DNA from: Scytonematopsis contorta HA4267-MV1 | GTDB taxonomy: Bacteria > Cyanobacteriota > Cyanobacteriia > Cyanobacteriales > Nostocaceae | Direction: 5' to 3' | NCBI GenBank assembly: GCA_019359035.1 | Contig: JAHHIC010000035.1 | Coordinates: 1 to 64,000 of the forward strand | Length of the DNA stretch: 64,000 nucleotides | Shown here: piece by piece, positions 40,592 to 57,687 of the stretch | Numbering within the stretch: position 1 is the stretch's first letter | Layout of the letters: every line of letters starts with the position of its first letter | Notes under the pieces: model-generated | Databases searched by the model: none | Told to the model about the DNA's origin: nothing | The model's input: the letters and a program-made list of their open reading frames with translations, nothing else | Made by a program: the position numbers and the translations under genes

Positions 40592-40659
40592 AAATCAGCG
40601 ACTATTTTCAGATATAGCGGTTCTCTGTTGAGTGAGGTATCAAGAAAAAGTAATACTCT

Positions 40660-40686: not shown

Positions 40687-40712
40687 TATACATTTCACCG
40701 GACTCAGAAGCA

Positions 40713-42902
40713 CTATAAATAACTTTTAGCCCCTGCTCGCACAATACGATTTGCATCCTCAGCAAGACGTTGACGAATATGCACTGGAGTATTAGGATTT
40801 GTCGCAATCGCGTAACGTTCCAACCAAGACCATGAGCGAAAATACTTTACTAACACATCGCTTGGTGTTAACGGATGCAGCAATACAAAAAAGCCCGATA
40901 ATGAGGGACATGGATGTTGCCAGATATAATTATCTAAATCCAAAATATCGGATTCAGGGTATTGCTTTATCAAGGTTTTTACGGCAGCTAAATGTATAGG
41001 TTCATTACAAAAATTAGTATCAGCTAATTCTTCCAGAATATCAATTGGGGTATGAGGATTTTTGGCAACTGCGATTCTTACAGCTTGGTTTTTGTCAACT
41101 ATAAGTTTTTCAATCAGAGTAGCAGGAATGTTAGTTTTATCGTCTTTTTTTGCGGGTTTATCTAGCTGATAAATTATCATTGCCGCTTTCGGATGCTGAG
41201 CTACGGCTTCACGGATAAGTACCCACTTACTTTGTGCTAATTTTGCTAAGGTTTCGTCTGGGGTATTAACGTTTTGTGCCATATTCCATTGTTGCCAAAA
41301 ATTATTCAAATCTTTATCGCGACGAGCTAAAGGATTTTTTTGCAATGCTATTAGTACTGCTTGTCTAATTTTATAATTATTATTATTTAACAGTTTTTTT
41401 AACAAATTTATAGGTAAATTTTGATTTTGTGTTAGCAATTGACGTAGACGAGGTGAGCGACTTTTCATCAATTGTTCAAAAATTGATTCTGATATTTTGG
41501 GATGTCGCGCTAAAGCTGTTTGCAAATCAATACTGTGAGTCAAAGCGCAACGGTCAAGAAAAGTATCTGAAATATCTAAGTCAAGAGCAATTTTCTGGCA
41601 AAGGTGATTAATTATCTGTGGAGGTATATACTTATTTTTACTTCCCACAATATTTTGTAAATCGTCAAGATATAACTCGCATTTTTTTTCTAAATAAACA
41701 TAATCCGTTTGAATATCTTTTGTATTATTCAGCTTTCTTTTGAGAGTTTTACTTGATTCTTCTCTTACAGTTTTAATATTATCCTGTTGTAATATTGCTA
41801 ATATATCGTCAGAGATGTTGCTATTTTTGGCAACAGCAAGGCGCATTTTCCAAGACTTATTTGTTGCGAGTTTTAATAACACTTCTTTTGGGGTATTTGG
41901 GTGAGATGCAACACCTTTAGAAATATGCATCCACTCATTAGTTGGAATTCGCATCAGTTCTTCAGGGCTTGTATTAGTATTTCCAATTGCTCTTTCATAT
42001 TCTTGAAAGCGTTGAAAAATTACGTTAGGAGTATTAGGATTTAGAAATACATTCCGACGCACCCTTTTATTTTCATCACCCGCAAGTTCTTCTAAAAGAT
42101 GGACAGGTGTATTCAAATTACTGGCAATTGCAACACGAACTTTATTAATAGCTGCTCTGGGATTTTTCAACAGCGCTTGTAAAATATATCCAGGGGTTTC
42201 CGGATGTTGTGCAATTTTCGTAATGGTTTTAAAATCTAAGGTCGTCAAAAAAGACTCAGGTATGACACCAATTTGCCATAAAGAATATTCAGATAATTCT
42301 TTGTGTACAATTCTGTCTTTATACAGTTGACGCTTCTGCACTACTTCCAAGGCTGCTTCTTCCCATCCCCACTCCATTTCACCAGACCAATTTACATGAA
42401 GTTTCGCGACTTGTTGTATTTGCTCAGAATTCCAATGCCTTTGAAATTTATTGATTAATTTCTGCAAATCTTCTTTACTAACTTTTGGATTCATAGTTAT
42501 AAAAAATAAGATTTGCGGTTCGTTGCTGCTGTTAAGTACCCATTGCAAAAACGAATCAGGTATCGATGGCAATTTTATAAGATTCACGAGTGTGGCTTCG
42601 GGTATATCCTGCATGAAATTAGGATTTTCCAACAATAGTAAGGAAAATACCGGGTTATCAAGCAACTCTTGTGGAAATTCCTCTCCTAATTTAAATAAAA
42701 CATCCGTTGGTGTGTTTGGGTTAGCAGCAACAGCTTGACGTATTTGTTCATCTTCGCTCGTGCTTAATTCTTGCAGCAGTTCAGGTGATGTATTTTCGTT
42801 ATTAGCAATGACTGCTGCTAGCTCTGGACTTTTTTGCAGCAACTCATTCAACCGTTCTGGTGAAGTATTTGTGTTAGCTGCTTCTAATTCTGGTGTAAGC
42901 AT
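40713..42902 (-). CDS. LRV-repeat protein A1
   Basis: The largest LRV protein in the window (729 residues). It begins LTPELEAANTNTSPERLNEL, as does A2. It carries the module EEFPQELLDNPVFSLLLLENPNF at about 75-97, then LRV units interrupted by a Trp-rich helical segment (about 165-215) and a second LRV block to the C-terminus (ends HIRQRLAEDANRIVRAGAKS). There is no signal peptide. A1 and A2 are paralogues along their whole length; A1 has an extra section in the middle. Confidence 0.88.
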   Translation of the reverse strand: MLTPELEAANTNTSPERLNELLQKSPELAAVIANNENTSPELLQELSTSEDEQIRQAVAANPNTPTDVLFKLGEEFPQELLDNPVFSLLLLENPNFMQDIPEATLVNLIKLPSIPDSFLQWVLNSSNEPQILFFITMNPKVSKEDLQKLINKFQRHWNSEQIQQVAKLHVNWSGEMEWGWEEAALEVVQKRQLYKDRIVHKELSEYSLWQIGVIPESFLTTLDFKTITKIAQHPETPGYILQALLKNPRAAINKVRVAIASNLNTPVHLLEELAGDENKRVRRNVFLNPNTPNVIFQRFQEYERAIGNTNTSPEELMRIPTNEWMHISKGVASHPNTPKEVLLKLATNKSWKMRLAVAKNSNISDDILAILQQDNIKTVREESSKTLKRKLNNTKDIQTDYVYLEKKCELYLDDLQNIVGSKNKYIPPQIINHLCQKIALDLDISDTFLDRCALTHSIDLQTALARHPKISESIFEQLMKSRSPRLRQLLTQNQNLPINLLKKLLNNNNYKIRQAVLIALQKNPLARRDKDLNNFWQQWNMAQNVNTPDETLAKLAQSKWVLIREAVAQHPKAAMIIYQLDKPAKKDDKTNIPATLIEKLIVDKNQAVRIAVAKNPHTPIDILEELADTNFCNEPIHLAAVKTLIKQYPESDILDLDNYIWQHPCPSLSGFFVLLHPLTPSDVLVKYFRSWSWLERYAIATNPNTPVHIRQRLAEDANRIVRAGAKSYL

Positions 42903-42990
42903 GGTACGAAGAAATTAAGCAAAGAGAGGAAAATATGGCAGTTACAGCACTTTATAGCTAAATTAGGTACACCTATTCAATACAATAACT

Positions 42991-43017
42991 CTTGTGGGGT
43001 GGGCATCCTTGCCCGCC
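42991..43017. repeat. GGGTGGGCATCC-family repeat between LRV genes
   Basis: CTTGTGGGGTGGGCATCCTT plus GCCCGCC, in the B2-A1 gap of 212 bp. Confidence 0.82.
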
Positions 43018-43114
43018 TGGTTGTACTTCACTAACTTGAAATCCGCTATATTTACCAAAATGTCATAGAATCGCCAAAATTGTCCTTTGTATTTTCACGG
43101 AAAAAATATTATTT

Positions 43115-44638
43115 TTATTTCCTGAGTCGCTTAGTCAATTTATTTACTGCAACGCGACGAACTATTGAATTTGTATCATTAACTAGTTCTTGGAGAGTAG
43201 TTTGCAGAGTATTTTGGTTAATAGCCACAGCTAACCGCACATCATCACATTGATGTTTAGCCAACTTTTCTAAAGAATAGAAATGCGTATTTTTATGTCC
43301 AGCAACTAATTTACAAATCAAAGCAATTTCATCATCAGCAAGATATTCTAGAGCACTAGCAGGAGAATATTTATTTTCAGCAACAGCAGTTCTAACATCT
43401 ACACAAGCATCTTTTGCCAATTTTAAGAAAATAAATTCTGATGCGTATTTAGATTTCGCTATTAATTTACGTACAATACTAGATTCATCATCCACAATTT
43501 TTTTTAGACAAGACTCCGGAATATAATTATAACCTGATAATACTGCAATACGTACATTAACATCCGAGTGTCGTATGCCCCATTCTATAACATATAATGG
43601 TAAATTTACTTTGCGAAAAATATCTCCATTCGCCTGGTATAGTTGATATAAAAAGTCACTATTTTGGGCGGTAATTAATTTAATCCCAGGGTTTTTGAAA
43701 ATTTTAATCCCAAATTCTTTGAACAAAACTAGCAGTGTTTCCTGTGAAGTATTAGCATGTTTAGCAACAGATTCTCTTATCTTTACATTATCGCTTGTAG
43801 CAAGTTTATCTAAAATGTTACTTGATGTATTAGGATTTTCTGCTACACCTTGTTTTACATGATTACCCTTATCTTCAGCTAATTTTTCCAACAAATAAAC
43901 TGGGGTGTTGGAATTACATGCGACCATTTTGCGAACATAAAATAATTTATCTTTGGTTAAATTTTCGAAAATATAATGGGGAGTTATGCTACTTCCTGCA
44001 ACTGCACCTCGAACTTCATAAGATTTATCCTGAGATAATAATTTTAGAGTATCCTCTTTTGTATTAAGATTATAAGGTACATGACGACGTACATCTTTAT
44101 TTTTATCTATGGCTAAAATATCTAAAATGTGATTGGATATTTGGTAATTACCTGCAACACTTGCTCGAACATATTTATCTTCATCTATAGCTAATTTTTC
44201 CAAAATATGGTTAGGTGTTTTAGGATTGGTTGCGACTCTAGAACGAACCTCCATTTTTTTATCTTCAGCTAATAGTTCTAAAATTAATTCAGGAAGTTTA
44301 TCACTACCTGCTATATCTAAATGAATATATTTGTCTGGTTGATTAATCGCCCATTTTAGAAAAAATAAAGGTACATCAGGGCAATCAAAAACGCTATTAT
44401 TTTCTTCATAGAGTTCAGCAAAAAAGTTAGGGTTTTCTAAAATTATAAAATCTAGTATGGGATTATTTAAAACATCGACCGGGAAATCATAGAATAGTTC
44501 TAGCAGTACATCAGGTGGTGTATTTGGATTTTTAGCAATAGCGATACAGACAGACTCATCAGAACTTTTAACTAACTCTCGTAAACGTTCCGCAGTTGTA
44601 TTTTCGTTCAGTACTTCTTGTAATAAATTATCTTGCAT
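43115..44638 (-). CDS. LRV-repeat protein B2
   Basis: A 507-residue LRV protein. The N-terminus (NLLQEVLNENTTAERLREL) and first 290 residues follow B1. The rest repeats the plan: a second LF-x5-module (VLFKEFGIKIFKNPGIKL, about 310) and further LRV units. Its ATG lies 13 bp after the A2 stop, so A2 and B2 are almost certainly co-transcribed. Confidence 0.88.
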   Translation of the reverse strand: MQDNLLQEVLNENTTAERLRELVKSSDESVCIAIAKNPNTPPDVLLELFYDFPVDVLNNPILDFIILENPNFFAELYEENNSVFDCPDVPLFFLKWAINQPDKYIHLDIAGSDKLPELILELLAEDKKMEVRSRVATNPKTPNHILEKLAIDEDKYVRASVAGNYQISNHILDILAIDKNKDVRRHVPYNLNTKEDTLKLLSQDKSYEVRGAVAGSSITPHYIFENLTKDKLFYVRKMVACNSNTPVYLLEKLAEDKGNHVKQGVAENPNTSSNILDKLATSDNVKIRESVAKHANTSQETLLVLFKEFGIKIFKNPGIKLITAQNSDFLYQLYQANGDIFRKVNLPLYVIEWGIRHSDVNVRIAVLSGYNYIPESCLKKIVDDESSIVRKLIAKSKYASEFIFLKLAKDACVDVRTAVAENKYSPASALEYLADDEIALICKLVAGHKNTHFYSLEKLAKHQCDDVRLAVAINQNTLQTTLQELVNDTNSIVRRVAVNKLTKRLRK

Positions 44639-44651
44639 AAATCAACGATTA

Positions 44652-46583
44652 TTATTTAGATAAATAACTTTTAGCAGCAGCTCGCACAATTCTATTTGCA
44701 TCTTCTGCGAGACGTTGACGAATATATACTGGGGTGTTGGGATTTGTAGCAATAGCATAACGTTCCAGCCACGACGATGAGCGAAAATGCTTTGCTAACA
44801 TTTTGCTAGATATAAAAGGATGTATCAACACAAAAAAACGTGAAAATGAAGGTTCTGGAGAATCCTTGGTACAATTTTCTATATAAATAGCTGCGCGTTC
44901 TGGGTGTCGCTGCAACAAATTTTTTACGGCAGCTATATGTATCGGATGTCTATAAAAAATGTTGTTTGCTAGTTGTTCCAGAATATTTATTGGAGTATTA
45001 GGGTTTTTAGCAACTGCTACTCTTACTACTGGGTTTTTGTCTAACAAGAGTTTTTCAATTAGAGTTGCGGGAATATTCGTTTTATCAGTACTTTTTGCTT
45101 TTTTCTTTGTCTTATAAACAATCATTGCCGTTTTGGGATTCAAAGCTACGGCTTCCCGAATAAGTACCCATTGACTTTGTGCTAATTCAAGTAGAGTCTC
45201 TGCTGGAGTCTCAACATTTTGTGCCATTTCCCAATGTTGCCAAAATTTTTCTAATGTTTCATGGCTACTACGAACTGAAGGATTTTTATGTAAAGCTAAC
45301 ACCCCTGTTTTACGAGTTTTCCAGTTCTTATCTTTTAACAGTTTGATTAATAGATTTGCAGGGAAATTAGGATTTTGGGGTACTAATGTACGTAAACGAA
45401 ATGAGGAGCTTTGGAAAAATGTTTCCAGAATTGATATTGGTGTTTTAGGATGTCGTGCTAAAGCTATTTTCAAATCAATGTTATCAATTAAAGCACAACG
45501 TATAAGATATTTATCCGATATATCTAAGTCTAGAGTAATTTTTCTACATAGCTTTTCTATATAATGACTACTCTCATAATAATTTTCCTCCTGATTTATT
45601 TCGATGATTTGAAGTAAAGTTTCAATAGATAAATCAGAGTCAGTTGTAACAGGTGTTTGCGAATTTTCATTTGATGCTTCATGTTTTTGGTATCGTTGAA
45701 AAACGGCATCCGGCATTTGAGGATTGAGGAAAGCATTTTGACGAACGGTTATGTTTTTATCATCCGCAAGTTTTTCTAAAATATGAGCAGGTGTGCTTAA
45801 ATTATTAGCAATAGCAATACGAAATTTTTTGGTAGCTGTTTTGCGATTTTTTAACAGTGTTTGTAAGATATGTCCTGGAGTATCCGGATGTTGAGCTATT
45901 TGTAGTAAAATATCTGGGTCTAGTGCGGTGATGAAAGATTCCGGAATAACACCCATTTGCCATAAACTAAATTCAGAAAGTAGTTCGTTTCTAATTGTAT
46001 CTTTAAATATTTGCTGTTTTCTTACTACCGAAAGTGCAGCTTCTTCCCACCCTGACCTCATCTCGGATGACCAATTTACGTGGAGTTTCGTTATGTTTGA
46101 TATTTGCTGTGACCACCAATAGAATTGAGAATTATTAATTAATTTCTGCAAATCATCTTTATTAATTTTGGGGTTCATTACCACAGCAAACAATATTGAT
46201 GCTCGTTTGCTCTGGATTGCCCATTGTAAATAAGAATCAGGTATTGATGGTGATTTCAGAAGACTGACTAGTGTAGATTCAGGGATATCTTCTATTAAAT
46301 TAGGATTTTCCAACAACAGCAGTGAAAATACTGGGTTATCAAACAACTCTTGCGGAAATTCCTCTCCTAATTTAAATAAAATATCTGTTGGTGTATTAGG
46401 GTTACTGCAAACAGCTTGACGAATTAGTTCATCCTCGCTTACCGATAATTCCTGCAACAACTCAGCTGGTGCATTTTCGTTACTTGCCACAATTATTCCC
46501 AGTTTAGGACTGTGAAGCCACAACTCCTTTAAGCGCTCTGGTGAAGTGTGCGTATTAGCTGCTTCCTGTGCTGGGGTTGGCAT
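44652..46583 (-). CDS. LRV-repeat protein A2
   Basis: A 643-residue LRV protein paralogous to A1, with the start PTPAQEAANTHTSPERLKEL, module EEFPQELFDNPVFSLLLLENPN, Trp-rich segment and C-terminal LRV block (ends RQRLAEDANRIVRAAAKSYL). It is the first gene of the A2-B2-A1-B1 run. It is separated from the vWA gene upstream by 271 bp with two G/C hairpins. Confidence 0.88.
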   Translation of the reverse strand: MPTPAQEAANTHTSPERLKELWLHSPKLGIIVASNENAPAELLQELSVSEDELIRQAVCSNPNTPTDILFKLGEEFPQELFDNPVFSLLLLENPNLIEDIPESTLVSLLKSPSIPDSYLQWAIQSKRASILFAVVMNPKINKDDLQKLINNSQFYWWSQQISNITKLHVNWSSEMRSGWEEAALSVVRKQQIFKDTIRNELLSEFSLWQMGVIPESFITALDPDILLQIAQHPDTPGHILQTLLKNRKTATKKFRIAIANNLSTPAHILEKLADDKNITVRQNAFLNPQMPDAVFQRYQKHEASNENSQTPVTTDSDLSIETLLQIIEINQEENYYESSHYIEKLCRKITLDLDISDKYLIRCALIDNIDLKIALARHPKTPISILETFFQSSSFRLRTLVPQNPNFPANLLIKLLKDKNWKTRKTGVLALHKNPSVRSSHETLEKFWQHWEMAQNVETPAETLLELAQSQWVLIREAVALNPKTAMIVYKTKKKAKSTDKTNIPATLIEKLLLDKNPVVRVAVAKNPNTPINILEQLANNIFYRHPIHIAAVKNLLQRHPERAAIYIENCTKDSPEPSFSRFFVLIHPFISSKMLAKHFRSSSWLERYAIATNPNTPVYIRQRLAEDANRIVRAAAKSYLSK

Positions 46584-46854: not shown

Positions 46855-48021
46855 TTACACCGACAACAATCGTACCGCTTCCCCAAAAGGAAACTCCTCC
46901 AACCCCAACCCCCCAGGAGTTACAACCCACAAAACAGGTAACTCTGGTTTTTCAAATGGAAAATCGCCATATCCATCCGTCAGGTAAATACATACCCCTT
47001 GAGTATACCCATCCCAACTAGCAGCCACCTTCTTAAAAAACGGCACAAAAGAAGTACCACCACCACCTTGAGCTTTCGGTAAAACACTATTTGAGTCAAG
47101 CTGATAAGGCCCATAAGCTTCCGCATCAGCATAATAAAGCTCACACTTAAGATGTGGATAAGAACTTAAAATCCCACTCACCTCACTCAAAAACATCTGT
47201 AATTCTTCCCCATCAACCGAGCCACTCGTATCTACCGCAACGTAAACTAGAACAGATTCTCCTTGTAAAGTCTCCAAGTATAATTTGCGTCCAATAAAAC
47301 GACGGTCAAAACCGGAAAAATCTGTAGGAGTCTGCACCAAATACCGCCAGAGATAAGCACGCCAATCAATCTGTGCTGACGTTAACACCCCCAATTCCCT
47401 ATCCATCCCAGCAGGAACCGTACCTTGACTAGTAGTACGCGAAATTACTAATGCTTGTTGTAGTGCATCGCGCCAGTGTGCATTTAAGGCAGCTTTGCGT
47501 GCTTCCGAGAGATTATCATCTCCATCACCACAATCACCACTACAACTAGAATCCCCATCACCTTCCAGCAAATCAGCATCAAATCCATCCGCACAAATCA
47601 TTTGATACTTCTCTGCGTCTTTGAGCAATATCTCGTAAATCTCCTCCACACTCAGCTTTTCCAAATCGCGATCGCAAATTCCACCGGGGGGTAATTCAAA
47701 CAGATTTTGCTGCAAAATTATACCGTTCGTCACAATATCAGCAGCATAGTTCCACAAAATCGCCTCTCGCACACCCCGACGAGGAACATGTAAAAGCGCA
47801 GCATGTAAAACCTCATGCAGCAACAACCCATCTTGTTGAGGAGTCGTCAAAGAAAGCAAATAATCTGGGTTAAAAAAAACATCTTTGCCATTAGTAGCAG
47901 CAGTAGTAATTTTTTCGCTCGCAATAAAGCGAGCAAATAAAGCCAGAGTCGCAAAAAACGGCGACTTCATCCGCAAGCGTAACAAAGAAGCACTAATTAT
48001 CTTTTGGGTTTGTTCAATCAT
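46855..48021 (-). CDS. vWA-like/putative metallopeptidase protein (DUF2201)
   Basis: A 388-residue DUF2201 protein. The N-terminal domain has an HExxH-type motif in LLHEVLHAALLHV, as in predicted metallopeptidases, and an acidic Cys-containing loop GDSSCSGDCGDGDD. The C-terminal vWA-like domain has the MIDAS start VAVDTSGSVDGEE. Such proteins pair with MoxR ATPases, as here (MoxR gene 136 bp upstream, same strand), to remodel or activate targets. ATG 48021 (MIEQTQK) is chosen; a longer frame to 48168 would add 49 Arg/Lys-rich residues read from a repeat and overlap the MoxR gene. A HIP1 site lies at 47668. Confidence 0.85.
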   Translation of the reverse strand: MIEQTQKIISASLLRLRMKSPFFATLALFARFIASEKITTAATNGKDVFFNPDYLLSLTTPQQDGLLLHEVLHAALLHVPRRGVREAILWNYAADIVTNGIILQQNLFELPPGGICDRDLEKLSVEEIYEILLKDAEKYQMICADGFDADLLEGDGDSSCSGDCGDGDDNLSEARKAALNAHWRDALQQALVISRTTSQGTVPAGMDRELGVLTSAQIDWRAYLWRYLVQTPTDFSGFDRRFIGRKLYLETLQGESVLVYVAVDTSGSVDGEELQMFLSEVSGILSSYPHLKCELYYADAEAYGPYQLDSNSVLPKAQGGGGTSFVPFFKKVAASWDGYTQGVCIYLTDGYGDFPFEKPELPVLWVVTPGGLGLEEFPFGEAVRLLSV

Positions 48022-48039
48022 TGGTCGGTTGTCGGTTGT

Positions 48040-48157
48040 TACGTAGTGCGTTCGCGTAGCGTGCCGCTTCGGCTTGCGTCCCGCTCGCTTTTTTCGTGTA
48101 GCGCAAGCGTCCCGCTCGCTTCTTTCACGTCCAGCTCGCTTTCTAATATCAGTCAAA
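48040..48157. repeat. repeat block CGTCCCGCTCGCT between MoxR and vWA genes
   Basis: Several copies of GCGTCCCGCTCGCTT(T) and GTAGCG(C/T), a common type of small cyanobacterial intergenic repeat. It splits an otherwise close gene pair. Confidence 0.7.
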
Positions 48158-49159
48158 TTAAATCCCAATCAATTGCTGATAATCTTGCAAAAACTTCTGA
48201 AGAGCCGGGTCTTTCTTTATCAATTTAGCCAACACACCCATTTGTCCACGACTTCGCATAACCCGGAATAAATCCGCAGCAAATAACTGCACCCACTCAG
48301 CCGTAGCAACTTTGTTTAACCAGGTAAAACCGTTATAAGCCTGATTAGCATCAACCGCACGCACCGTCAAACCAATAACCGTAGCATAGCGCGTACTTGG
48401 TTCAGAAGAAAAAGGCACTTTATCCCCATTACCTTCCAAAATCGGCATTAAATCCGGCAAAGTCTCATAAAGCTTAATAAACGCATCAAACTCAGCCTTA
48501 GTACCACCCCCTACCGCAGGAGCAATATCAAGTCCCGCATAATGTAACTTACTCCCCATAACCCAAGAACGTGGAGATGGCCAAGCTGGTTGTTGAGGGT
48601 CAATTTTGTGTAGCAAACTAGACCGGAACGAAAGGAAAGCAATAATTTGCTCATGCACTCCTGTTTCCAAAGCAAAAGCTTTAAAACTATCAAAATCAGG
48701 TTGCACTTCCAAATGCAAAAACCTATTTGCAAGAGGAGAAGGCATATCAAAAACAGCAGCGCGGTCTTCTTTTCGGTTTCCCGCAGCCCAAACAAACCAA
48801 CCAGAGGGCACAGCATAAGAACCTACACGACGGTCTAAAATCAACTGTTGGGCAACACCTTGCATCGCAGGGGGAGCCATATTCAGTTCATCTAAAAACA
48901 AAATCCCTTTCCCAGCACGAGGTAAAAATTCTGGTGGATACCATTTGGAAATGCCATCTTCCGCAACAGGTAAACCTCGTAAATCAGTAGGTGCTAATTG
49001 AGACAAGCGAATATCAACAAAATCGATGTTTTGCTCTTGGGCAATTTGCGCCACAATACTGGATTTGCCAATACCAGGAGAACCCCAAATCATTGTGCTG
49101 ATTTGCAAGTTTTTACGGATAAGGTGGTCTAAATAATCTTTCAACTCAGAAGGAGTCAT
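48158..49159 (-). CDS. MoxR-type AAA+ ATPase
   Basis: A 333-residue AAA+ protein with Walker A WGSPGIGKSS (about 25-34), DLRGLP, Walker B ILFLDELNMAP, sensor I WAAGNR and an arginine-finger region SPLANRFLHLEV. MoxR ATPases work with vWA proteins as chaperones or metal/cofactor inserters; the vWA partner gene follows. It is the first gene of the leftward part of the island and is divergent from the GrpE-like gene across 750 bp. Confidence 0.9.
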   Translation of the reverse strand: MTPSELKDYLDHLIRKNLQISTMIWGSPGIGKSSIVAQIAQEQNIDFVDIRLSQLAPTDLRGLPVAEDGISKWYPPEFLPRAGKGILFLDELNMAPPAMQGVAQQLILDRRVGSYAVPSGWFVWAAGNRKEDRAAVFDMPSPLANRFLHLEVQPDFDSFKAFALETGVHEQIIAFLSFRSSLLHKIDPQQPAWPSPRSWVMGSKLHYAGLDIAPAVGGGTKAEFDAFIKLYETLPDLMPILEGNGDKVPFSSEPSTRYATVIGLTVRAVDANQAYNGFTWLNKVATAEWVQLFAADLFRVMRSRGQMGVLAKLIKKDPALQKFLQDYQQLIGI

Positions 49160-49909
49160 GAAATTTGATGTTGTGAATTTATGGTTGCTACTCTGCTAGT
49201 ATTCCCCAATGTGAAAGCATAAATTGCTTTATAAAACGTAATTATATTTAATAGTACACATAGACTTATGAGACTTTACTAGCTTTCTGATTGTAAAGAT
49301 ATGTAAGCAATACAAACTTAACTCCAATATTAATTTCACGTCGTCATTGAACACCTTTACAAAATTAAACATAACAACTTCTAATAGTACCTAACCCACA
49401 TACAATCTGCTTGTTCACTGAAGTATCCGCAAAAATAAACCCCCTTCCGAGACAACGAACTCAACAAACCAGTGGCACAACCGGGGTGATATTTTTTATA
49501 ATTAAGTAAGTTAAGCGAACTTAAATATTTAGAGAGTACAGGAATAGCACGACAGTAAAAGATTATACCCAGGTAGTTTACTACTTGGTTATTTTTGGCT
49601 ACTAATTTTTCACCAAAATTGTTAATGATATGATTATTTATCCATAAATTAATAATAAATAGCTGTTGATTAATCTGTACTTTACACTTATCTAATTTTT
49701 ACGATTTAAAATTAATTATAAAACCGATATATTATTTTTCCACTTGTTTAATAACAAGGGTAATTTAGTAGTACCAATATTAAAAATCGCCTTCAAAGCT
49801 CACTTATTAAATTATTTATAATTAGCGGCTTAGCATCTATCCTATAAAACAAACTCCGGTTTATGCGTGAGACTCTTGATTCTATTGCAACCCGCTGTAA
49901 TTTCCAACC
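49160..49909. other. 750-bp divergent control region of the island
   Basis: AT-rich, with no gene seen. It contains the hairpin CCAGGTAGTTTACTACTTGG (8-bp stem, TTTA loop, about 49571-49590) and the dyad TAAGTTAAGCGAACTTA (about 49509). It is free of heptamer arrays, unlike most long gaps here. It should carry promoters for the MoxR side and for the GrpE/Hsp70 side. Confidence 0.6.
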
Positions 49910-51133
49910 ATGAATAGAAACATGCCAGAAAAACAACCAAATCCCCATGATTTACCCAAGAAAAAACCAAACCCACAGCAAAGATATAAACCGAATACAC
50001 CAGTAAATTCGGTGGAGGAAAAAGTACTCGAACCATCAAACTACCCACCAGAGTCATTACCCTGGATTAAACTAGTAACATATCTTAATGAATCTTACCA
50101 AGATTTTATTCCCCAAAATACTAAAAATCAAAAGTACCAAGAAAATAACAAACAGCTCCATCAAAGATGCGTCGAAGTCATCAGTGAAAATTCATTAGAT
50201 GATTGGCAAAAGATAATATCACAAAAATTTACAGAAAATGACCAGAAAGGAGCTAATAACTTTTATTTTCGGCTCTCCAATAGATATAGAGAATCACCAA
50301 ATAAATTCCGTCAAATCTTAAAAACCAACTTATATAGATTCGTCGAACTAATAGAATATGCTCTCACAGAATCAGAAAACCGTGATTTAGTCAGAATTAG
50401 TGAATTTGTTGACGTAATAAACTCCTTTGGTAACACATCGGAACAAACTTTCTTCTTCTTGTCAAAGCTTCCCTCTGTTCTTGATGAAGATATTCGCAAT
50501 ATTCTTCTACAGTCAATAGGTTATCAGCAAATTTTAAAATGGGGAGCTTCTCCCATGCTTCGCAAATTTGGGCTACAATTCCAAAGAAAATTTCGTCTAA
50601 CTCGCACTGCAATTAAAGATGAAGCAGCACAAAATTTAGCTCGTGAATTAGGTGAAACAGAGACAGTATTAACAAACCAGATAGAGCAGCTTATCGAAGA
50701 GAACGAAAGACTGCAAAATTCTTTAGAAACAGTTCATACCCAAGCATCACAAACAGCTATTTACAATTTGGCAAAACTTCTCCAAAGTCAAGCACAACCA
50801 GTTTTAGACCAAATTTTTACTTTGCACCAAAAATTAGAAAAAATGTCAGAAGCAGAAGATGGTTTATCAGTGACATCGAGCGAAGCTTTGAGTATTTTGA
50901 TTACTTTGGAATCTTTGTTAAAAGCATTTCATAGTCTAAATATTACAACATTTCCCAAAAATATAACTAAGCCATTTGAATTAGACAGCAATCAATTAGG
51001 GGAATACTCATATATTGAAGGTTCAACTTTTACCAATAACGATAATAAAAAGAAAGTATGTTGTGTTTTTCCTGGATGGAGAGTAGGGGAAGAAATAATC
51101 ACACCAGCACGAGTCAAAGAAGTTTCTGAGTAA
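49910..51133 (+). CDS. GrpE-like protein with long N-terminal extension
   Basis: A 407-residue protein. The N-terminus (1-45) is Pro/Lys/Asn-rich. Residues about 50-235 are helical and not recognised. A coiled coil follows (about 240-275, NQIEQLIEENERLQNSLE), then helices, and the last 25 residues (VCCVFPGWRVGEEIITPARV) resemble the GrpE beta domain (PGY..GD.VLRPA.V). I infer a nucleotide-exchange factor for the Hsp70 encoded 62 bp downstream on the same strand; the similarity is limited to the C-terminal third. Confidence 0.6.
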   Translation: MNRNMPEKQPNPHDLPKKKPNPQQRYKPNTPVNSVEEKVLEPSNYPPESLPWIKLVTYLNESYQDFIPQNTKNQKYQENNKQLHQRCVEVISENSLDDWQKIISQKFTENDQKGANNFYFRLSNRYRESPNKFRQILKTNLYRFVELIEYALTESENRDLVRISEFVDVINSFGNTSEQTFFFLSKLPSVLDEDIRNILLQSIGYQQILKWGASPMLRKFGLQFQRKFRLTRTAIKDEAAQNLARELGETETVLTNQIEQLIEENERLQNSLETVHTQASQTAIYNLAKLLQSQAQPVLDQIFTLHQKLEKMSEAEDGLSVTSSEALSILITLESLLKAFHSLNITTFPKNITKPFELDSNQLGEYSYIEGSTFTNNDNKKKVCCVFPGWRVGEEIITPARVKEVSE

Positions 51134-51195
51134 ATGCTTCCAAGGCTAAAAATTAAAAGTTAAACACTAAAAGTTAAACATAAAGGGGGAAAAGT

Positions 51196-54100
51196 ATGAG
51201 TATCGCTGTACTGTTGGATTTGGACAATATTAAGCCAAAACTTTCAGCCATAGAAAAACTTTGTCAGTCTTATGGTCAATTAATCGAACGTCGAGCTTTT
51301 TCTAATACACATGCTGTATTAACCGCATATGGTGGAGGCTTCCGAGAATTTGGTTATCGCTTTGAGTTAGCACCTGGTCTAAATCCTATGCCTCAAGAAG
51401 TCGATAACTTAATTGAAAGAACAGCCATAGAAATAGCAGGTAACTCAAATTTAGATGTAAAGATAATTGCAATTGTCAGCAACGACAACGATTATACAAG
51501 AGTTCTAAGAAATCTGAAAACACGAGGAATAAAAACATTAGTAATTGGTAATCAAATTGGCAATAGTCTTCGAGAAACGGCTGATTATATAGAAGTTCTC
51601 AGAGAAGTTATGCGTCCTACTTATGTAGGAATAGATTTGGGAACGACAAATACAGTCATGTCTTTAGCCAATATTAATATTATGCAGCAATGGGTCGCAA
51701 ATGCTATCGAAGTACCAGTCAAAAATGAACAAGGTGCTTTGGTGAACAAGCAGATAATACCCTCATCAGTACGTTTTAGTTCCCACACAGAAGCAGAAGT
51801 GGGAGAAAATATCAAAGCTCAAGCTTATGCTTTTCGTGACCAAACAATTTTGGCTTGGAAGCATGACATGGGGTGTTCTGAAGATGGTAAACCTTTTTAT
51901 TATCAGTTAACCGCAGGAAAAATTGCTCCAGAAGAAGCTGCTGCAAAGGTTCTGGCTTTTTGCCGAGAACGATTGTTGCAAAGATATGGAGAAGTGCAAG
52001 GTGCAGTTATCACTCATCCAGCATCCTATGAATCAGACGCGATTGAAGCAACCCGCAAAGCAGCAGTGATTGCGGGTTGGAAAGAGGAGGAAGTTGTATT
52101 GCTTGCTGAACCGCAAGCAGCGTTATACGACTTTCTTTTTCGATTGCAGAAGGGTGAGGTTTTGCCACCCTTTGAGATGACAGAACCATTCAACATACTT
52201 GTTTATGATTTGGGTGGTGGAACTCTAGATGTGACTCTGCATAAAGTGCAGTGGAATCCCACAGTCAATCGCTTTATCATTGGAGATATTGCGGTTGGTT
52301 CCCGTACTAGAGTTGGTGGGGATAAAGTTGATATATTGATTAGCGAATATATCTTGGAAAAACATCCCCACTGTCAAACACTCTCCGAAGCTGACCAAAA
52401 GAAATTGCGTTATGAACTGCCAATTTACGCAGAAAAATTTAAGAAATTGTGGGGTGCTGAGTATGCGGAATCCCAGGATAAAGAGAATTTTAAGTATTTA
52501 TTTCAAGGAAATTTTTTAGATTCACAATTCCCCATTCGTTATTACATCAGTGTTGAACGGATGCGAGAAATTCTTGCTCCTTTACTGTGCGAAAATTTAA
52601 ATTTGGGTTCTATAGAAAAAATGAACCCGGAAACAGCTTTTGATGAATCACCGTTTACCGATAATTTTAATACTTTTGTTGTACCTGTTTTAGAAGTACT
52701 TCTCAAAGCCAAACAAAGCAGTGGTCAAAATCCCAAAATAGATGCAGTTTTGTTAAATGGAGGAATGACATACTTCCCTCCTGTACGAGAATGTTTAGCT
52801 AAATTATTTGGTGATATTCCCATTTTAAATGATGGAAATCCTGATTTAGCAGTAGCTAGAGGAGCAGCATTATTTGCTTCTGGTGCTCTTAAACCTGGTG
52901 AGGGTGTGAACCCAACAAATATTTATCTAGAGGTAAATGAAAAAGATAAAAGTAAGTTACGTTTATTAGTCGCACAAGGACAAAAGTTTCCTTATCGCAC
53001 TATTTTAAAAGATTTTAGATTACCCGAAAAATATAACGGTTGTTTAGGATTTAAAGTTTGGGTGGGTATGGGTACTCAAGTACAACTTAACACTAACCTG
53101 CAACGATTGCGACAAGTCCCAATGGAGAAAATTATCCAAGCTAACTTAGAACCAGGTTGTCTGCTTGATTTAGAAGTTGAATATACATTTGATGAAAGAC
53201 TTTTACTCACATTAATTTCTCAAAATGATAATCAAAAACGTTTTCAGTTAGAAGTGACTTCAGAATCGCGCTATTTCGCGACAACTACTGCGACGACTAC
53301 TGTTACTACTAATAGTGCAACAGTCACAAAAACTGAAACTACACCATCTCCATCAATAAATATTCCTCCAATTCCCAGACAAAGAAAAGGAAAAGCAATT
53401 ACTCCAGGTGTAAGAATATCCTGGAATAAATGGGAAAGTATGGCTAAAAGCCTCAACGGGAGGTGGAGTAATTCTGCAATATTACATCAAGAACGTCGAG
53501 AATTAGAAAGCAAAACAGCAACTGCTGAAAATCGTTTAGACCTGATTAAAGAGTTTATGCGGTGGTTGGAAATTGGTGATAGAATCAATTCATCTATTGC
53601 TGAAGTGCAAACACATATTGCTGTCAAAGCATTAAACACAATTTTTCATTCTCTAGATACAAATGATATTACTTATGTAGGACTAGAGAAAAAATATCAA
53701 CAGTGGGTCAAAAATAAATTACAGCGTCACTCATTAGGAAAAATACCAAACCCATTACTAGATGATATTGCAAAAGCCCCTGGTAAGTTATTATGGACTG
53801 GTTTTGATGAAGACTTGATAAGAGCTTTTACTTTCCATGAACGACAAGCAATTGCTGAAATATTTTTAGAATCCTTAGCAAAGTGCGGTCATTTAACAGG
53901 CAATACTTTAAATTTACTAAATCGAGTCATTAAAAATAGCCCACACGTTGGACAAAAAGAAAGAGCAACTTGGGCTTTAGGAAGGTTAATTAGTCCCGCA
54001 CAACCTCAAGATTGGCAAGCGAAACGAACTTACGTAGAAAGTGTTGCTAAATTAGTGTTGGAACAATTACAAGTACACACAACTGACGCGAGATTGGCTT

Positions 54101-54360
54101 TAAGCCTTTTAGGGTGTTTAAGTCAATGTGTTGCTTGGCACACTACAGGGTTAAAACTCAGTGAAAATGTCTGTCAGCAGGTACAAAAATTACCGGGAAT
54201 GCGTCTTGCTGTTACTCCTTATTTAGCTGGTTATCCTCAGATTCAGAAAACTTTTGAAGAAAGGCTGCCGTTGTTACCGAAGATGCTGGAAATTGAGCGA
54301 GCTTCTTCTGAAGAAATAGCCCAGATGCAAGAGTGGCTTTTGGAATCTCTGAAAGGATAA
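51196..54360 (+). CDS. NYN (PIN-like nuclease)-Hsp70 fusion protein
   Basis: A 1054-residue fusion. Residues 1-138 are a NYN/LabA-like PIN domain: acidic residues in LLDLDN (Asp8, Asp10), EVDNLIE (Asp70) and SNDNDY (Asp97, Asp99) fit an active metal-dependent RNase. An Hsp70 ATPase domain begins at about 143 (VGIDLGTTNT), with LVYDLGGGTLDV (about 335) and VLLNGGMTYFPP (about 518). A beta-rich domain follows (about 575-690), a Thr-rich linker (about 695-720), and a helical C-terminal domain (about 735-1054) replacing the usual lid. Nuclease activity may be gated by the chaperone cycle (inference). A GrpE-like gene precedes it. Confidence 0.88.
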   Translation: MSIAVLLDLDNIKPKLSAIEKLCQSYGQLIERRAFSNTHAVLTAYGGGFREFGYRFELAPGLNPMPQEVDNLIERTAIEIAGNSNLDVKIIAIVSNDNDYTRVLRNLKTRGIKTLVIGNQIGNSLRETADYIEVLREVMRPTYVGIDLGTTNTVMSLANINIMQQWVANAIEVPVKNEQGALVNKQIIPSSVRFSSHTEAEVGENIKAQAYAFRDQTILAWKHDMGCSEDGKPFYYQLTAGKIAPEEAAAKVLAFCRERLLQRYGEVQGAVITHPASYESDAIEATRKAAVIAGWKEEEVVLLAEPQAALYDFLFRLQKGEVLPPFEMTEPFNILVYDLGGGTLDVTLHKVQWNPTVNRFIIGDIAVGSRTRVGGDKVDILISEYILEKHPHCQTLSEADQKKLRYELPIYAEKFKKLWGAEYAESQDKENFKYLFQGNFLDSQFPIRYYISVERMREILAPLLCENLNLGSIEKMNPETAFDESPFTDNFNTFVVPVLEVLLKAKQSSGQNPKIDAVLLNGGMTYFPPVRECLAKLFGDIPILNDGNPDLAVARGAALFASGALKPGEGVNPTNIYLEVNEKDKSKLRLLVAQGQKFPYRTILKDFRLPEKYNGCLGFKVWVGMGTQVQLNTNLQRLRQVPMEKIIQANLEPGCLLDLEVEYTFDERLLLTLISQNDNQKRFQLEVTSESRYFATTTATTTVTTNSATVTKTETTPSPSINIPPIPRQRKGKAITPGVRISWNKWESMAKSLNGRWSNSAILHQERRELESKTATAENRLDLIKEFMRWLEIGDRINSSIAEVQTHIAVKALNTIFHSLDTNDITYVGLEKKYQQWVKNKLQRHSLGKIPNPLLDDIAKAPGKLLWTGFDEDLIRAFTFHERQAIAEIFLESLAKCGHLTGNTLNLLNRVIKNSPHVGQKERATWALGRLISPAQPQDWQAKRTYVESVAKLVLEQLQVHTTDARLALSLLGCLSQCVAWHTTGLKLSENVCQQVQKLPGMRLAVTPYLAGYPQIQKTFEERLPLLPKMLEIERASSEEIAQMQEWLLESLKG

Positions 54361-54417
54361 AGGGTTTTTGCGGTATCAACAAATAAATTAAAGTAAATTT
54401 TGAGTTCATGAAGTAGG

Positions 54418-54447
54418 AGTGGGCGGGCAGGGATGCCCACCCCACAA
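54418..54447. repeat. GGGTGGGCATCC-family repeat
   Basis: AGTGGGCGGGCAGGGATGCC plus CACCCCACA, between the Hsp70 gene and the putative retron RNA. Confidence 0.8.
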
Positions 54448-54473
54448 TATTTTATATTTTTGCTTGCACCCCG

Positions 54474-54659
54474 CTCACTTGAAATTCTATGTATTTACGG
54501 GATTCTCAATCTAAAAATGCACTTGCATTTTGGAATGAGCTTGTAGCTCATTCATGTAAATGTCAGTGGTTCGGGATACTCTAGCTCAAATTTTTATCAG
54601 ATTTTAGGACATGTTACTGCCTGCTGTACAACTTTTGCTGTATTATTAGCCAGAGTGAG
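54474..54659 (+). ncRNA. candidate retron msr-msd RNA
   Basis: This 186-nt stretch ends 5 bp before the RT start. Its ends can pair (CTCACTT at 54474 with GAGTGAG at 54653, a possible a1/a2). Two msr-like stem-loops follow (AAAATGC/GCATTTT at 54514-54531; GAATGAGC/GCTCATTC at 54533-54553), then a longer imperfect hairpin (GTAAATGT with ACATGTTAC, 54556-54618) as a possible msd. A clear branching-G context is not seen near a1, so the assignment is tentative. Confidence 0.4.
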
Positions 54660-54664
54660 GACTA

Positions 54665-55522
54665 TTGATACCAGCAGCAAAAGTAAAATATTTATACAAG
54701 TCAATAAACTACATTTTTTTGAGAAAATTATCGCTCTTAGGCGTGTCTCAAAAAGAGTTAAAAAAATTAACTGTACCTAAAAATCTTTATATTGAAAGAG
54801 AAGAAAAGAAGTCTGGAAAAAAGCCGCGAATTATAGAAGAACCAAAGTTTCAACTCAAAAGAATACAAAAGAGGATAGCAAATCTCCTCAGCAGAATTGA
54901 AACACCTGGGTTTTTGTTCTGTCCTGCGAAGGGACGCTCAAACATTTGCAATGCAAGACAACACGCTAATCAAGCTGTTGTTCATAAACTTGATATCAAA
55001 ACATTTTTTGCATCATCATCAAAACGTGTATACTGGTTTTTCCATACAGTTATGCAGTGTGCGTCAGATATTGCTGGTATTTTAACAAAGTTATCTACTT
55101 TAAAAGGACATTTGCCTACAGGTAGTCCACTTAGTCCTATTCTTTCATACTACACCTATGTGGATATGTGGAATGCAATTGACAAGATAGTTCATGAAGC
55201 TAATTGTATACTCACAGTTTACATGGATGACCTAACAATATCAGGTTCAAAGGTTTCTCGTAAATTAATTTGGCAGATTAAAGAACAAATTTATCGTTGT
55301 GGGTTAAAGTATAGCAAGGAAAAGCGTTATACAGGAAAAAACCGTGAAATAACAGGAGTTATAATTGTAAATGGTAAATTGAAACTACCAAATCGCCAAC
55401 ATTTAAAAATGTACAAATTACGTGGTCAGATTCAACAGGAAAATCAAGCGGAGAAACTAAGTAAGTTGCGTCAAAAGCTTCAAGGTTTAGAAGCACAAGC
55501 AAGATTAATTCAAGAAGTTTGA
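54665..55522 (+). CDS. retron-type reverse transcriptase
   Basis: A 285-residue RT. The retron-specific NAxxH motif is NARQH (about 96). Motif A is LDIKTFF. CASDIAGILTKLST and LPTGSPLSP (about 149) are typical of retrons. The catalytic motif is YMDD (about 185; retrons usually have YADD or YVDD), and the VTG motif appears as ITGVIIV (about 228). There is no maturase or endonuclease domain, so it is not a group II intron RT. The start is TTG, preceded by GTGAGG. It should copy an adjacent RNA into msDNA. No standard retron effector is adjacent; candidates are the flanking NYN-Hsp70 or LRV proteins. Confidence 0.88.
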   Translation: MIPAAKVKYLYKSINYIFLRKLSLLGVSQKELKKLTVPKNLYIEREEKKSGKKPRIIEEPKFQLKRIQKRIANLLSRIETPGFLFCPAKGRSNICNARQHANQAVVHKLDIKTFFASSSKRVYWFFHTVMQCASDIAGILTKLSTLKGHLPTGSPLSPILSYYTYVDMWNAIDKIVHEANCILTVYMDDLTISGSKVSRKLIWQIKEQIYRCGLKYSKEKRYTGKNREITGVIIVNGKLKLPNRQHLKMYKLRGQIQQENQAEKLSKLRQKLQGLEAQARLIQEV

Positions 55523-55614
55523 ATAGGTATACTTTATTAGCTTCAATATTTCAGGGAGCTTTTGATTATTTAAATACTTGTGTGTACGCAGTAAGCTCGT
55601 TTACAGGGAGGGTA

Positions 55615-56850
55615 CTAAGACTCATCATGCATAGCTACAGTGGATTGTTCTTTTAAATTATTTAATGCAACACAGCGAACAATTTTACTTGTATCATTGG
55701 CTAAACATTGGAGAATTTCAGGTGATGTTTTACGGTTAATAGCAACAGCCAATCGTACTTCTTTACATTTATGTTGAGCTAACTTATATAAAATATAAGA
55801 AGTTACGTTATTATGTCTTGCGACTAATTTACAAATCATAGGTATTTCATCATCGACAAGAAGTTCCAAAGCATTAGCAGGAGACTTTTTATTTTGTACA
55901 ACTGCAGTTCTAACATCTGTACAAAAATCTCTTGCTAACTTGCATAAAATTTTAGTAGATGCCCATTGAGACTGTGCTATTAATGTACGTACAGCAGTAG
56001 CTTTATCATCTATATTTTCTTCTAAAATTTCAATCAAAAACTTTGGTGCGCTTTCTATAAGAAAAAGATTTTTATTTGCATAATATAATTGATATATAAA
56101 ATTGTGATTGCTTTGTATTAATAATCTAAGGCTAGGATTATTTAATACTTCTGAGCTAAATTCTTTAAACAAACTTAGTAATGCTTTTGATGATGTATTG
56201 CTATGCTTAGCAACAGCTTCTCTTACAGTCTTATCAAAACTTGTAGCTAGCCTATCTAAAATTTCAGTTGATGCGTTAGGGTTTTCTGCTACTCTCAATT
56301 GTACATATTCATCATCATCTTGAGCTAGTTTTTCTAAAATATGGATTTGAGTGCTGGAATTACGTGCAATAGACATTCGTATATACTCATTATCTTTTGT
56401 AGTCAAATTTTCTAAAATATGATTGGGTGTATTTGGATTTTCTGCTACTACAATAACAACTTCATCATCACTATTTTGTGCTAGTTTTTCCAAAATATAA
56501 TCAGGGGTACTAGGACTCCTTGCAACATATTCTTGAATAAATTGGCTTGGTTGTTTGATTGCCCATTCAATAAAAAATAGTGGAATATTTTCCTGAATAA
56601 AAACGCCTGGATAAGCTTCAAAAAGCTGACTAAAAAAATTAGGATTTTCTAAAACTAATAAACTTAGGATTGGATTATTTAAAACATGAAGTGAAAATTC
56701 GGGAAATAATTCTACCAATACATCTTGTGGTGTATTAGGGTTTTGAGCAACAGCTATACGGACGGATTCATCTTTGCTATTGCCTAGCTCTCTTAAACGT
56801 TCTGCTATTGTATTGTTATCCTGAGCTTCTTGTAACAAATTGTCTTGCAT
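55615..56850 (-). CDS. LRV-repeat protein B3
   Basis: A 411-residue LRV protein with the B-type start NLLQEAQDNNTIAERLREL and module LFPEFSLHVLNNPILSLL. It also carries the second module (SLFKEFSSEVLNNPSLRLL), like B2. It is convergent with the RT gene (92 bp between stops). It is a third B-type copy without an A partner, about 11 kb from B2. Confidence 0.88.
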   Translation of the reverse strand: MQDNLLQEAQDNNTIAERLRELGNSKDESVRIAVAQNPNTPQDVLVELFPEFSLHVLNNPILSLLVLENPNFFSQLFEAYPGVFIQENIPLFFIEWAIKQPSQFIQEYVARSPSTPDYILEKLAQNSDDEVVIVVAENPNTPNHILENLTTKDNEYIRMSIARNSSTQIHILEKLAQDDDEYVQLRVAENPNASTEILDRLATSFDKTVREAVAKHSNTSSKALLSLFKEFSSEVLNNPSLRLLIQSNHNFIYQLYYANKNLFLIESAPKFLIEILEENIDDKATAVRTLIAQSQWASTKILCKLARDFCTDVRTAVVQNKKSPANALELLVDDEIPMICKLVARHNNVTSYILYKLAQHKCKEVRLAVAINRKTSPEILQCLANDTSKIVRCVALNNLKEQSTVAMHDES

Positions 56851-56919
56851 AAGGATTTTTTATATAAGAGGTTTTTCTACTAGTATTCCCAGATTTCAAA
56901 GCTAAACAGTACCTCTTAG

Positions 56920-57330
56920 CTATCTTGACTCTCTACTGTAAGCGACAGCTAATGTCACCACACCGGGAAATCCTTCTAGCCGAAAAACTTGTTTAGGAAC
57001 AATCAAAGTAGGAGAAGAACAATAATCAAAAACCGCAAGCAAAGCAGCAGCTTCAGCCACACTTGTAGTTCCTATTTTCTCCCCCACTATCAACGAAGCA
57101 TTAGGCACAGAAACAGCAGATAGAGCATCAGCACTAAAAGTTTTTAAAGGTAGATTGCACGTGCGACAAAATTCAAGCAAACCTGTTTCCCCAGCTTTTC
57201 TGTCAATACTCGCAATACCCACAATCAAACTTTCAGGTAAACTGTAACTCTGAAAAACCTGCTTAATCCCAATTTCTATAACCTCTCGACAAGTACCCTT
57301 TTGACAACCAATTCCCACCCAAAATTGCAT
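56920..57330 (-). CDS. CobE/CbiG C-terminal family cobalamin protein
   Basis: A 136-residue protein of the CobE/CbiG-C fold: WVGIGCQKGTCREVIE, LPESLIVGIASIDRKAGE and GTTSVAEAAALLA are typical. In CbiG this domain helps open ring A lactone or scaffolds corrin-ring synthesis. As a free-standing protein it is probably CobE-like. No other cob gene is nearby. Confidence 0.82.
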   Translation of the reverse strand: MQFWVGIGCQKGTCREVIEIGIKQVFQSYSLPESLIVGIASIDRKAGETGLLEFCRTCNLPLKTFSADALSAVSVPNASLIVGEKIGTTSVAEAAALLAVFDYCSSPTLIVPKQVFRLEGFPGVVTLAVAYSRESR

Positions 57331-57687
57331 TTATATAACCGTAGAGAAAATTAACAAGTACCATCGCGTTTACACAAATTAGAAAAAAACTGTCATTACG
57401 CTGACGTAGTGATTAGATAAATCGTAGCCCCCTCCCCGTTTACGGGGGAATGTCGCTAAGAAATGCTCACATAATACCCCTGAACTAAAGTTCGGGCTGA
57501 AAGCTTAAACCCGTTAAAAACGGGTTGTAATATAAACATAATAGGGGTTTTAGTCCGTTTACCCTTCGGGATAACTTCGTTAACAACGGACTTTAGCTTT
57601 TAGCCCGAACTTTAGTTCAGGGGTATTGGGGGAGCTTTTCTTAGTGCCATTCGTTTACGGGGTTGGGGGTTGGGGGTGGGTTCTTGC
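57331..57687. repeat. nested foldback (MITE-like) element
   Basis: The inner inverted repeat 57473-57627 begins AATACCCCTGAACTAAAG, ends CTTTAGTTCAGGGGTATT and has small hairpins inside (AACCCGTTAAAAACGGGTT). The flanks show a second, looser inverted repeat (CCCCGTTTACGGGG side and CGTTTACGGGG side; CTAAGAAA/TTCTTAG), as if one element had inserted into another. The rest of the gap is featureless. Confidence 0.78.

What the first reader, a model, noticed from the sequence alone, without database searches (positions are those of the whole stretch)
51196..54360. NYN ribonuclease domain fused to an Hsp70
The N-terminal 138 residues keep the NYN/PIN acidic residues (Asp8, Asp10, Asp70, Asp97, Asp99) and run directly into a complete Hsp70 ATPase domain. 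The normal substrate lid is replaced by a long helical domain. Chaperone-gated RNase activity would be a new type of control.
Basis: partly seen in the sequence, partly recalled or inferred. Interest (0 to 1): 0.8.

Follow-up and report, generated by a model that had tools for sequence, protein, structure and literature searches.

The report
Ribonuclease domain fused to Hsp70 chaperone
Some cyanobacteria and a few other bacteria carry a two-gene unit in which an RNA-cutting type of domain is built into a heat-shock chaperone and travels with its own chaperone-resetting factor, hinting at an RNA cutter that is switched by a protein-folding machine.

Summary
One 1054-residue ORF (51196-54360 +) joins an N-terminal NYN domain (Pfam above cut-off; model closest to MARF1 and VPA0982 NYN structures, Z 17-18) to an Hsp70 ATPase domain, a substrate-domain-like beta sandwich and, in place of the lid, a HEAT/ARM-like solenoid. 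The fusion is no accident: it recurs at 45-61% identity in scattered cyanobacteria (9 of 292 genomes sampled) and in one other phylum (3 of 149), and forms a single clade. At 23 of 23 loci a roughly 400-aa protein with a GrpE-like C-terminal half lies directly upstream on the same strand, while other neighbours differ. D8, D10, N11, D70 and D97 never vary; D99 does. On two plasmids a beta-CASP RNase, a protein with a weakly GrpE-like tail, an unfused Hsp70 and a HEAT protein are consecutive genes, a parallel arrangement. My searches of open full texts found no description of the fusion. The best reading is an endoribonuclease whose access to RNA is set by the Hsp70 ATP cycle and reset by a dedicated exchange factor. 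The anatomy is well supported; RNase activity and gating are inferred. A role in phage defence or stress mRNA decay is open.

The parts
51196..51600 (+). NYN domain, residues 1-135; predicted metal-binding residues D8, D70, D97, with D10 and N11
   Evidence: Pfam PF01936 above cut-off; VIA-align Z 18.0 to MARF1 NYN 5yaa and 17.4 to 2qip; residues invariant in 19 sequences
51622..52920 (+). Hsp70 nucleotide-binding domain, about residues 143-575
   Evidence: Pfam HSP70; profile hit to DnaK structures E 4.6e-26; D147, T150, T151, K222, E305, D338, GGGT 340-343 and GGD 374-376 invariant in 18 sequences
52921..53265 (+). SBD-beta-like beta sandwich, residues 576-690
   Evidence: 8 strands in the model; Foldseek alignments of 580-615 columns to DnaK NBD+SBDbeta chains
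53398..54357 (+). HEAT/ARM-like alpha solenoid, residues 735-1054, in place of the Hsp70 lid; fastest-changing part
   Evidence: model pLDDT mostly 80-95; armadillo/importin chains Z about 15-17; mean pairwise identity 0.426 against 0.64 for NYN
51196..54360 (+). whole NYN-Hsp70-solenoid gene
49910..51133 (+). partner gene, 407 aa: helical N-domain, long coiled coil, GrpE-like C-terminal half
   Evidence: Pfam GrpE 20.3 bits, below the 25.8 cut-off; Foldseek best hits GrpE, 1dkg_B E 3e-4; VIA-align Z 8.8-10.1 to six GrpE/GrpEL1 entries, next unrelated 5.9; upstream at 23 of 23 loci

Best explanation
It is a two-gene unit: a dedicated GrpE-type nucleotide exchange factor followed by an NYN-Hsp70-solenoid protein. 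The NYN domain is most likely a Mn/Mg-dependent endoribonuclease. It sits directly on the N-terminus of the Hsp70 ATPase domain (about ten residues between them), so ATP binding, hydrolysis and docking of the beta sandwich can expose or cover its active site. The solenoid that replaces the lid recognises the trigger, a protein or ribonucleoprotein. Binding drives the ATPase into a state in which the NYN cuts nearby RNA, and the partner resets it by nucleotide exchange. Shown here: the domains (the solenoid and the GrpE fold by prediction), their order, invariant catalytic-type residues in both enzymes, one origin of the fusion, the constant partner, the fast-changing solenoid. Inferred: RNase activity, gating, trigger. 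The unit is patchily inherited and, given the parallel module with a different RNase, may be a stress- or invader-triggered RNA-cutting system.
For: Domain profiles and models. NYN acidic residues invariant in 19 sequences; D8/D70/D97 spacing (62, 27) resembles the published MARF1 set D358/D426/D452 (68, 26), and the equivalent first Asp of B. fragilis NYN is needed for RNA cleavage (passages of PMC11346440 and PMC6294520). Profile-profile match to LabA-like NYN proteins of the same genome, probability 92.7, E 4.3e-7, pairing D8, N11 and D97 with their counterparts. ATPase residues invariant in 18. Fused clade 100/100. Partner upstream at 23 of 23 loci while MoxR, vWA, RT and two LRV neighbours recur at 0 of 22 other loci. 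NYN is the best-conserved part (mean pairwise identity 0.64; NBD 0.618; SBD-beta 0.593; solenoid 0.426) with dN/dS 0.02-0.28 in eight pairs. Parallel module of beta-CASP RNase, protein with weakly GrpE-like tail, Hsp70 and HEAT protein on two plasmids.
Against: No RNase or gating measurement exists. The NYN match to LabA-like proteins is distant: one LabA-like sequence alone gave no match (probability 0.2), and in the profile alignment D70 falls three columns away from the LabA-like Asp. No PDB sequence matches the NYN by profile. The ATPase part of the model is poor (pLDDT under 50 for much of 139-373), so the geometry between NYN and NBD is unknown. The window partner scores below the Pfam GrpE cut-off. 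The solenoid's variation looks partly like recombination: pS rises with pN. The parallel beta-CASP module rests on two records; the GrpE-like tails there align weakly (probability 9.9 and 60.5).
Confidence: 0.5

Rival explanations
1. RNP remodeller: the Hsp70 engine, with its solenoid, takes proteins off RNA or a stalled ribosome, and the NYN, always active, then cuts the freed RNA. The ATPase feeds the nuclease rather than gates it, as helicases feed exonucleases in RNA decay machines.
For: Same anatomy; SBD-beta-like sandwich kept. An NYN enzyme, Rae1/YacP, is reported to act in ribosome-dependent mRNA decay (stated in the introduction passage of PMC11346440). HEAT proteins next to a beta-CASP RNase in the parallel module.
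Against: No RNA-binding or ribosome-binding domain recognised besides the NYN. A dedicated exchange factor suits a timed switch as well as an engine.
Confidence: 0.22
2. Targeting module: the NYN fold binds RNA or ribosomes to bring a specialised chaperone there, with little or no cutting.
For: D99, second Asp of the SxDxD-type motif, is Gly in 4 of 19.
Against: D8, D10, N11, D70, D97 invariant in 19 of 19 including a second phylum, and NYN better conserved than the rest; a mere RNA-binding role would not need them.
Confidence: 0.15
3. Conflict-system reading: an abortive, invader-sensing toxin-like RNase in which the solenoid senses phage or plasmid products. This is a role rather than a different mechanism, so its confidence overlaps with that of the best explanation.
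For: Patchy (9 of 292); window copy lies outside the 9-member Nostocales clade though its genome shares a family with some of those hosts; RNase type differs between fused and unfused modules; the unfused one is on plasmids, once near an integrase; solenoid hypervariable between close relatives; a bacterial immune protein is known to sense through DnaJ (abstract of PMC12169576); chaperone-based conflict systems and units with HSP70 and GrpE are described (passages of PMC7159879).
Against: No PADLOC model fits (best PDC-M61B, 13 bits, E 0.0074). None of five window neighbours recurs elsewhere; by eye many neighbours elsewhere are housekeeping genes. Absent from phage and viral collections searched.
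Confidence: 0.4
4. Frame or assembly artefact: two genes joined by error.
For: None; broken copies do exist in Hormoscilla.
Against: Same junction in independent genomes of two phyla, with purifying selection.
Confidence: 0.01

Closest known systems
NYN/PIN-like ribonucleases (MARF1 NYN, VPA0982, CRISPR-associated NYN, LabA-like proteins)
   Same: Fold (Z 17-18), invariant Asp set with MARF1-like spacing
   Different: Here fused to an Hsp70 ATPase; distant in sequence; TIGR00288 score 24.7 against a 178.45 cut-off
DnaK/Hsp70 chaperones
   Same: ATPase motifs and SBD-beta-like sandwich
   Different: No lid; HEAT/ARM-like solenoid instead; far below DnaK and HscA cut-offs (104.5 of 648 and 104 of 708.55 bits); no DnaK-like LLL linker seen (by eye, motif recalled)
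GrpE exchange factors
   Same: Coiled coil plus C-terminal beta head; nearest structures are GrpE and GrpEL1
   Different: Extra helical N-domain (47-227); below the Pfam cut-off in the window copy
Chaperone-based conflict systems of Kaur et al. 2020 (PMC7159879, passages read)
   Same: HSP70 and GrpE genes in about 14% of GAP1-N2 neighbourhoods
   Different: Those are GTPase-centred multigene systems; NYN does not occur in that text (0 hits) and no fusion to HSP70 showed in the passages
Unfused beta-CASP RNase / GrpE-like-tail / Hsp70 / HEAT cluster on plasmids pNCT2_2 and pNY3A
   Same: Similar four functions side by side
   Different: Separate genes, a metallo-beta-lactamase RNase instead of NYN, Hsp70 31% identical; HEAT part not alignable by BLAST

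Membership tests
NYN domain (PF01936) | Profile match above the curated cut-off | tested here: met
   28.8 bits against 24.2; 18 of 19 members match at E 0.01
NYN domain (PF01936) | PIN-like fold shared with solved NYN domains | tested here: met
   5yaa Z 18.0, rmsd 2.5 over 137; 6fdl 17.4; 2qip 17.4
NYN domain (PF01936) | Three active-site Asp equivalent to MARF1 D358, D426, D452 | tested here: inconclusive
   D8, D70, D97 invariant with similar spacing; D8 and D97 align with LabA-like Asp, D70 is three columns off
NYN domain (PF01936) | Metal-dependent RNase activity | not testable with these tools
   needs protein
TIGR00288 NYN family | Score above the equivalog cut-off | tested here: not met
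   24.7 against 178.45 bits
Hsp70 superfamily | ATPase domain with phosphate and catalytic residues | tested here: met
   Pfam 105 bits; named residues invariant in 18; which residues are catalytic is recalled
DnaK (orthologue) | Score above the DnaK equivalog cut-offs | tested here: not met
   104.5 of 648 (NF001413) and 100.8 of 822.55 (TIGR02350) bits
DnaK (orthologue) | Helical lid (SBD-alpha) | tested here: not met
   solenoid predicted in its place
GrpE (PF01025), partner gene | Profile match above cut-off | tested here: not met
   20.3 against 25.8 bits; the small GrpE-like protein of L091, related at E 1e-6, scores 30.8
GrpE (PF01025), partner gene | Coiled coil and beta-head fold of GrpE | tested here: met
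   Foldseek ranks 1-11 all GrpE/GrpEL1 chains; Z 8.8-10.1 for six entries, next unrelated 5.9, one further GrpE entry 5.4
DUF3731 Hsp70s (PF12531) | C-terminal domain match | tested here: inconclusive
   not among matches of 19 members at E 0.01; genome search rang in no control
PADLOC defence systems | Good match to a system model | tested here: not met
   only PDC-M61B, 13 bits, E 0.0074; no match up to E 0.1 for the partner
GAP1-N2 GTPase conflict systems (PMC7159879) | Linked GAP1-N2 GTPase gene | not tested
   no targeted search; Pfam scan of ten window proteins named no such GTPase

The most novel reading that the evidence does not exclude
A class of chaperone-switched ribonucleases: a set of non-DnaK Hsp70s with private GrpE-like exchange factors and HEAT-type sensors has acquired RNases at least twice, NYN by fusion and beta-CASP by linkage. 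It uses the Hsp70 ATP cycle as a sensor-timer that unleashes RNA cutting when the solenoid meets a misfolded, viral or foreign assembly.
Probability: 0.25. Interest if true: 0.9.

Novelty: new variant of a known kind. Interest (0 to 1): 0.7.

Why it matters
Hsp70s are known as folding engines served by J-proteins and exchange factors. A nuclease built into one, with a private exchange factor and a variable solenoid, would mean that the Hsp70 cycle can serve as a molecular switch for RNA destruction. The conserved two-gene unit makes this directly testable in vitro with two proteins.

Tried and rejected
Artefact of frame or assembly: rejected, the same junction recurs. Link to the nearby retron-type RT, the MoxR/vWA pair or the LRV genes: rejected as conserved partners, 0 of 22 other loci carry any of five neighbours tested by tblastn at 1e-8. 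Heat-shock CIRCE element: no match with up to 3 mismatches in the window. Rfam: nothing at E 0.5 in 48500-57500. Promoter and terminator scan: no more promoter-like sites than shuffles (18 against 18.4) and no terminator-like site on the + strand between the two genes. Single-protein scan of genome contigs: none of 44 pattern matches encodes a relative; the alignment scan found 17 loci, but its patterns came only from the NYN, so it could not find Hsp70s without NYN. To look for those I used the C-terminal part (10 of 194 genomes, namely nine fused proteins also found with the full protein, plus one weak hit in a frame with stops, L069) and the full profile. Plasmids: 102 records, Hsp70-type matches, none covering 80%. 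Phages: 19 records, none covering 80%, all ten listed matches confined to the Hsp70 part. Viral contigs: none. Profile searches of PDB sequences with the NYN and the partner gave no convincing relative. BLAST of the solenoid against the Priestia HEAT protein: E 0.60, so homology of the two solenoids is not shown. Near search of the beta-CASP cluster: 0 E. coli genomes, only its own plasmid record. Literature: searches; none of the listed titles, abstracts or passages I read describes the fusion. The original NYN paper (Anantharaman and Aravind 2006) is known to me only from reference lists; the Rae1 paper PMC5412759 is not held.

Full report
What is there. The window holds one ORF of 1054 codons at 51196-54360 +, with an in-frame stop at 51181 and a likely ribosome-binding site. 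Pfam finds an NYN domain at residues 3-132 and an HSP70 ATPase domain from 144, both above their cut-offs. A model built from 15 homologues is good for residues 1-135 and 743-1053 and poor for much of the ATPase domain. Its best structural matches are the NYN domains of mouse and human MARF1 and VPA0982 (Z 18.0, 17.4, 17.4; rmsd 2.5, 2.8, 2.3 over 137, 140 and 134 residues); the C-terminal region gives armadillo and importin-type solenoids at Z about 15-17, to be read with care since helical repeats match widely. Foldseek aligns 580-615 columns with lidless DnaK chains, and strands 576-687 look like SBD-beta. So the order is NYN, ATPase domain, beta sandwich, solenoid; the lid is gone.

The enzymes look intact. 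Published active sites are D358/D426/D452 of MARF1 and D13/D118/D143 of B. fragilis NYN, whose D13A mutant is dead (passages); D8/D70/D97 have a spacing close to that of MARF1. A profile comparison with eight LabA-like or other NYN proteins of the same genome pairs D8, N11 and D97 but leaves D70 three columns off, so that one equivalence is inferred. In 18 full sequences D147, T150, T151, K222, E305, D338, GGGT and GGD of the ATPase are invariant. Their equation with DnaK residues is from recall.

The partner. Directly upstream lies 49910-51133 +, 407 aa. Its Pfam GrpE score is below cut-off (20.3 of 25.8), but its model has GrpE and GrpEL1 chains as the eleven best Foldseek hits and Z 8.8-10.1 for six GrpE/GrpEL1 entries against 5.9 for the next unrelated chain; a seventh, Thermus GrpE, has 5.4. 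Five window neighbours recur at none of the other 22 loci.

Distribution and descent. Fusions: 9 of 148 genomes of the order (G127 in pieces, G133 with one stop), 9 of 292 of the phylum, both with the window genome. The contig scan found 17 loci in Prochloron, Geminocystis, Hormoscilla, Anabaena, Dolichospermum, Cuspidothrix, Anabaenopsis, Nodularia, Nostoc and others, plus three MAGs (L048, L049, L054). These three lie in one phylum, 3 of whose 149 genomes have the fusion (L054 is cut by its contig end), so the label Burkholderiales on L048 is doubtful. The Hsp70 tree gives one clade of 18 fused proteins, support 100/100. This points to transfer or loss; the unfused rows have long branches and their places are unsure.

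Evolution of the parts. Mean pairwise identity over 18 sequences is 0.64 for NYN, 0.618 for ATPase, 0.593 for the sandwich and 0.426 for the solenoid; dN/dS of the NYN is 0.02-0.28 in eight pairs, and the solenoid reaches 0.58 in one Anabaena-Dolichospermum pair. There pN and pS rise together in patches, which suggests recombination as much as selection.

A parallel. The best-ranked Hsp70 in plasmids (31% identity) is on Priestia plasmid pNCT2_2. Upstream are a 476-aa protein with a weakly GrpE-like tail (probability 9.9) and a beta-CASP metallo-beta-lactamase with RNA-specificity domain; downstream is a HEAT protein. A plasmid labelled Klebsiella grimontii has the same order after an integrase, with the Hsp70 in two frames (tail probability 60.5). 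Its stretch has 34.9% GC, so the host label should be checked. In the second phylum G406 has an unfused Hsp70 after a small GrpE-like gene (Pfam 30.8 bits). RNase, GrpE-like protein, Hsp70 and HEAT thus occur together in two unlike builds.

Mechanism. Most likely the NYN is an endoribonuclease whose access to RNA depends on the nucleotide state of the Hsp70, with the solenoid as sensor and the partner as reset. The short junction (NYN ends near 133, ATPase starts near 143) makes coupling plausible. None of this is measured. Feeding rather than gating, and a role in defence rather than stress decay, are open; no PADLOC model fits and the phage and viral collections searched lack the fusion.

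Novelty. Full-text searches returned no description of an NYN-Hsp70 fusion; I read passages of PMC7159879, PMC8195603, PMC3710099, PMC11346440 and PMC6294520 and the abstract of PMC12169576. Subscription papers are not covered. I rate it a new variant: known parts in a new, conserved arrangement with a constant partner.

Noticed in passing
54665-55522 +: Reverse transcriptase, best PADLOC match RT_VI (E 1.6e-89), 305 bases downstream of the Hsp70 gene; no Rfam match nearby and not found at the other 22 loci.
   Followed up: partly
39536-46583 - and 55615-56850 -: Five genes rich in leucine-rich-variant (LRV) repeats flank the region.
   Followed up: no
46855-49159 -: MoxR-like AAA ATPase and DUF2201 vWA/metallopeptidase-like pair divergent from the partner gene; not found at the other 22 loci.
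   Followed up: partly
L070 2648-9505; L071 2897-10506: Plasmid cluster of beta-CASP RNase, protein with weakly GrpE-like tail, Hsp70 and HEAT protein; L071 is labelled Klebsiella but is 34.9% GC.
   Followed up: partly
L040, L050, L051, L052 (Hormoscilla): The pair is duplicated and decaying: partner doubled to 616 aa in L040, two copies on one contig (L050, L051), gene split in L052.
   Followed up: no
L044, L045, L047, residues 663-785 and 966 to the end: Patches of high divergence in the C-terminal half between nearly identical genes, pN and pS raised together.
   Followed up: partly
own genome C46, C57, C64, C65, C66, C104, C109: Eight further NYN matches in the genome, most of LabA-like type by eye.
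   Followed up: no
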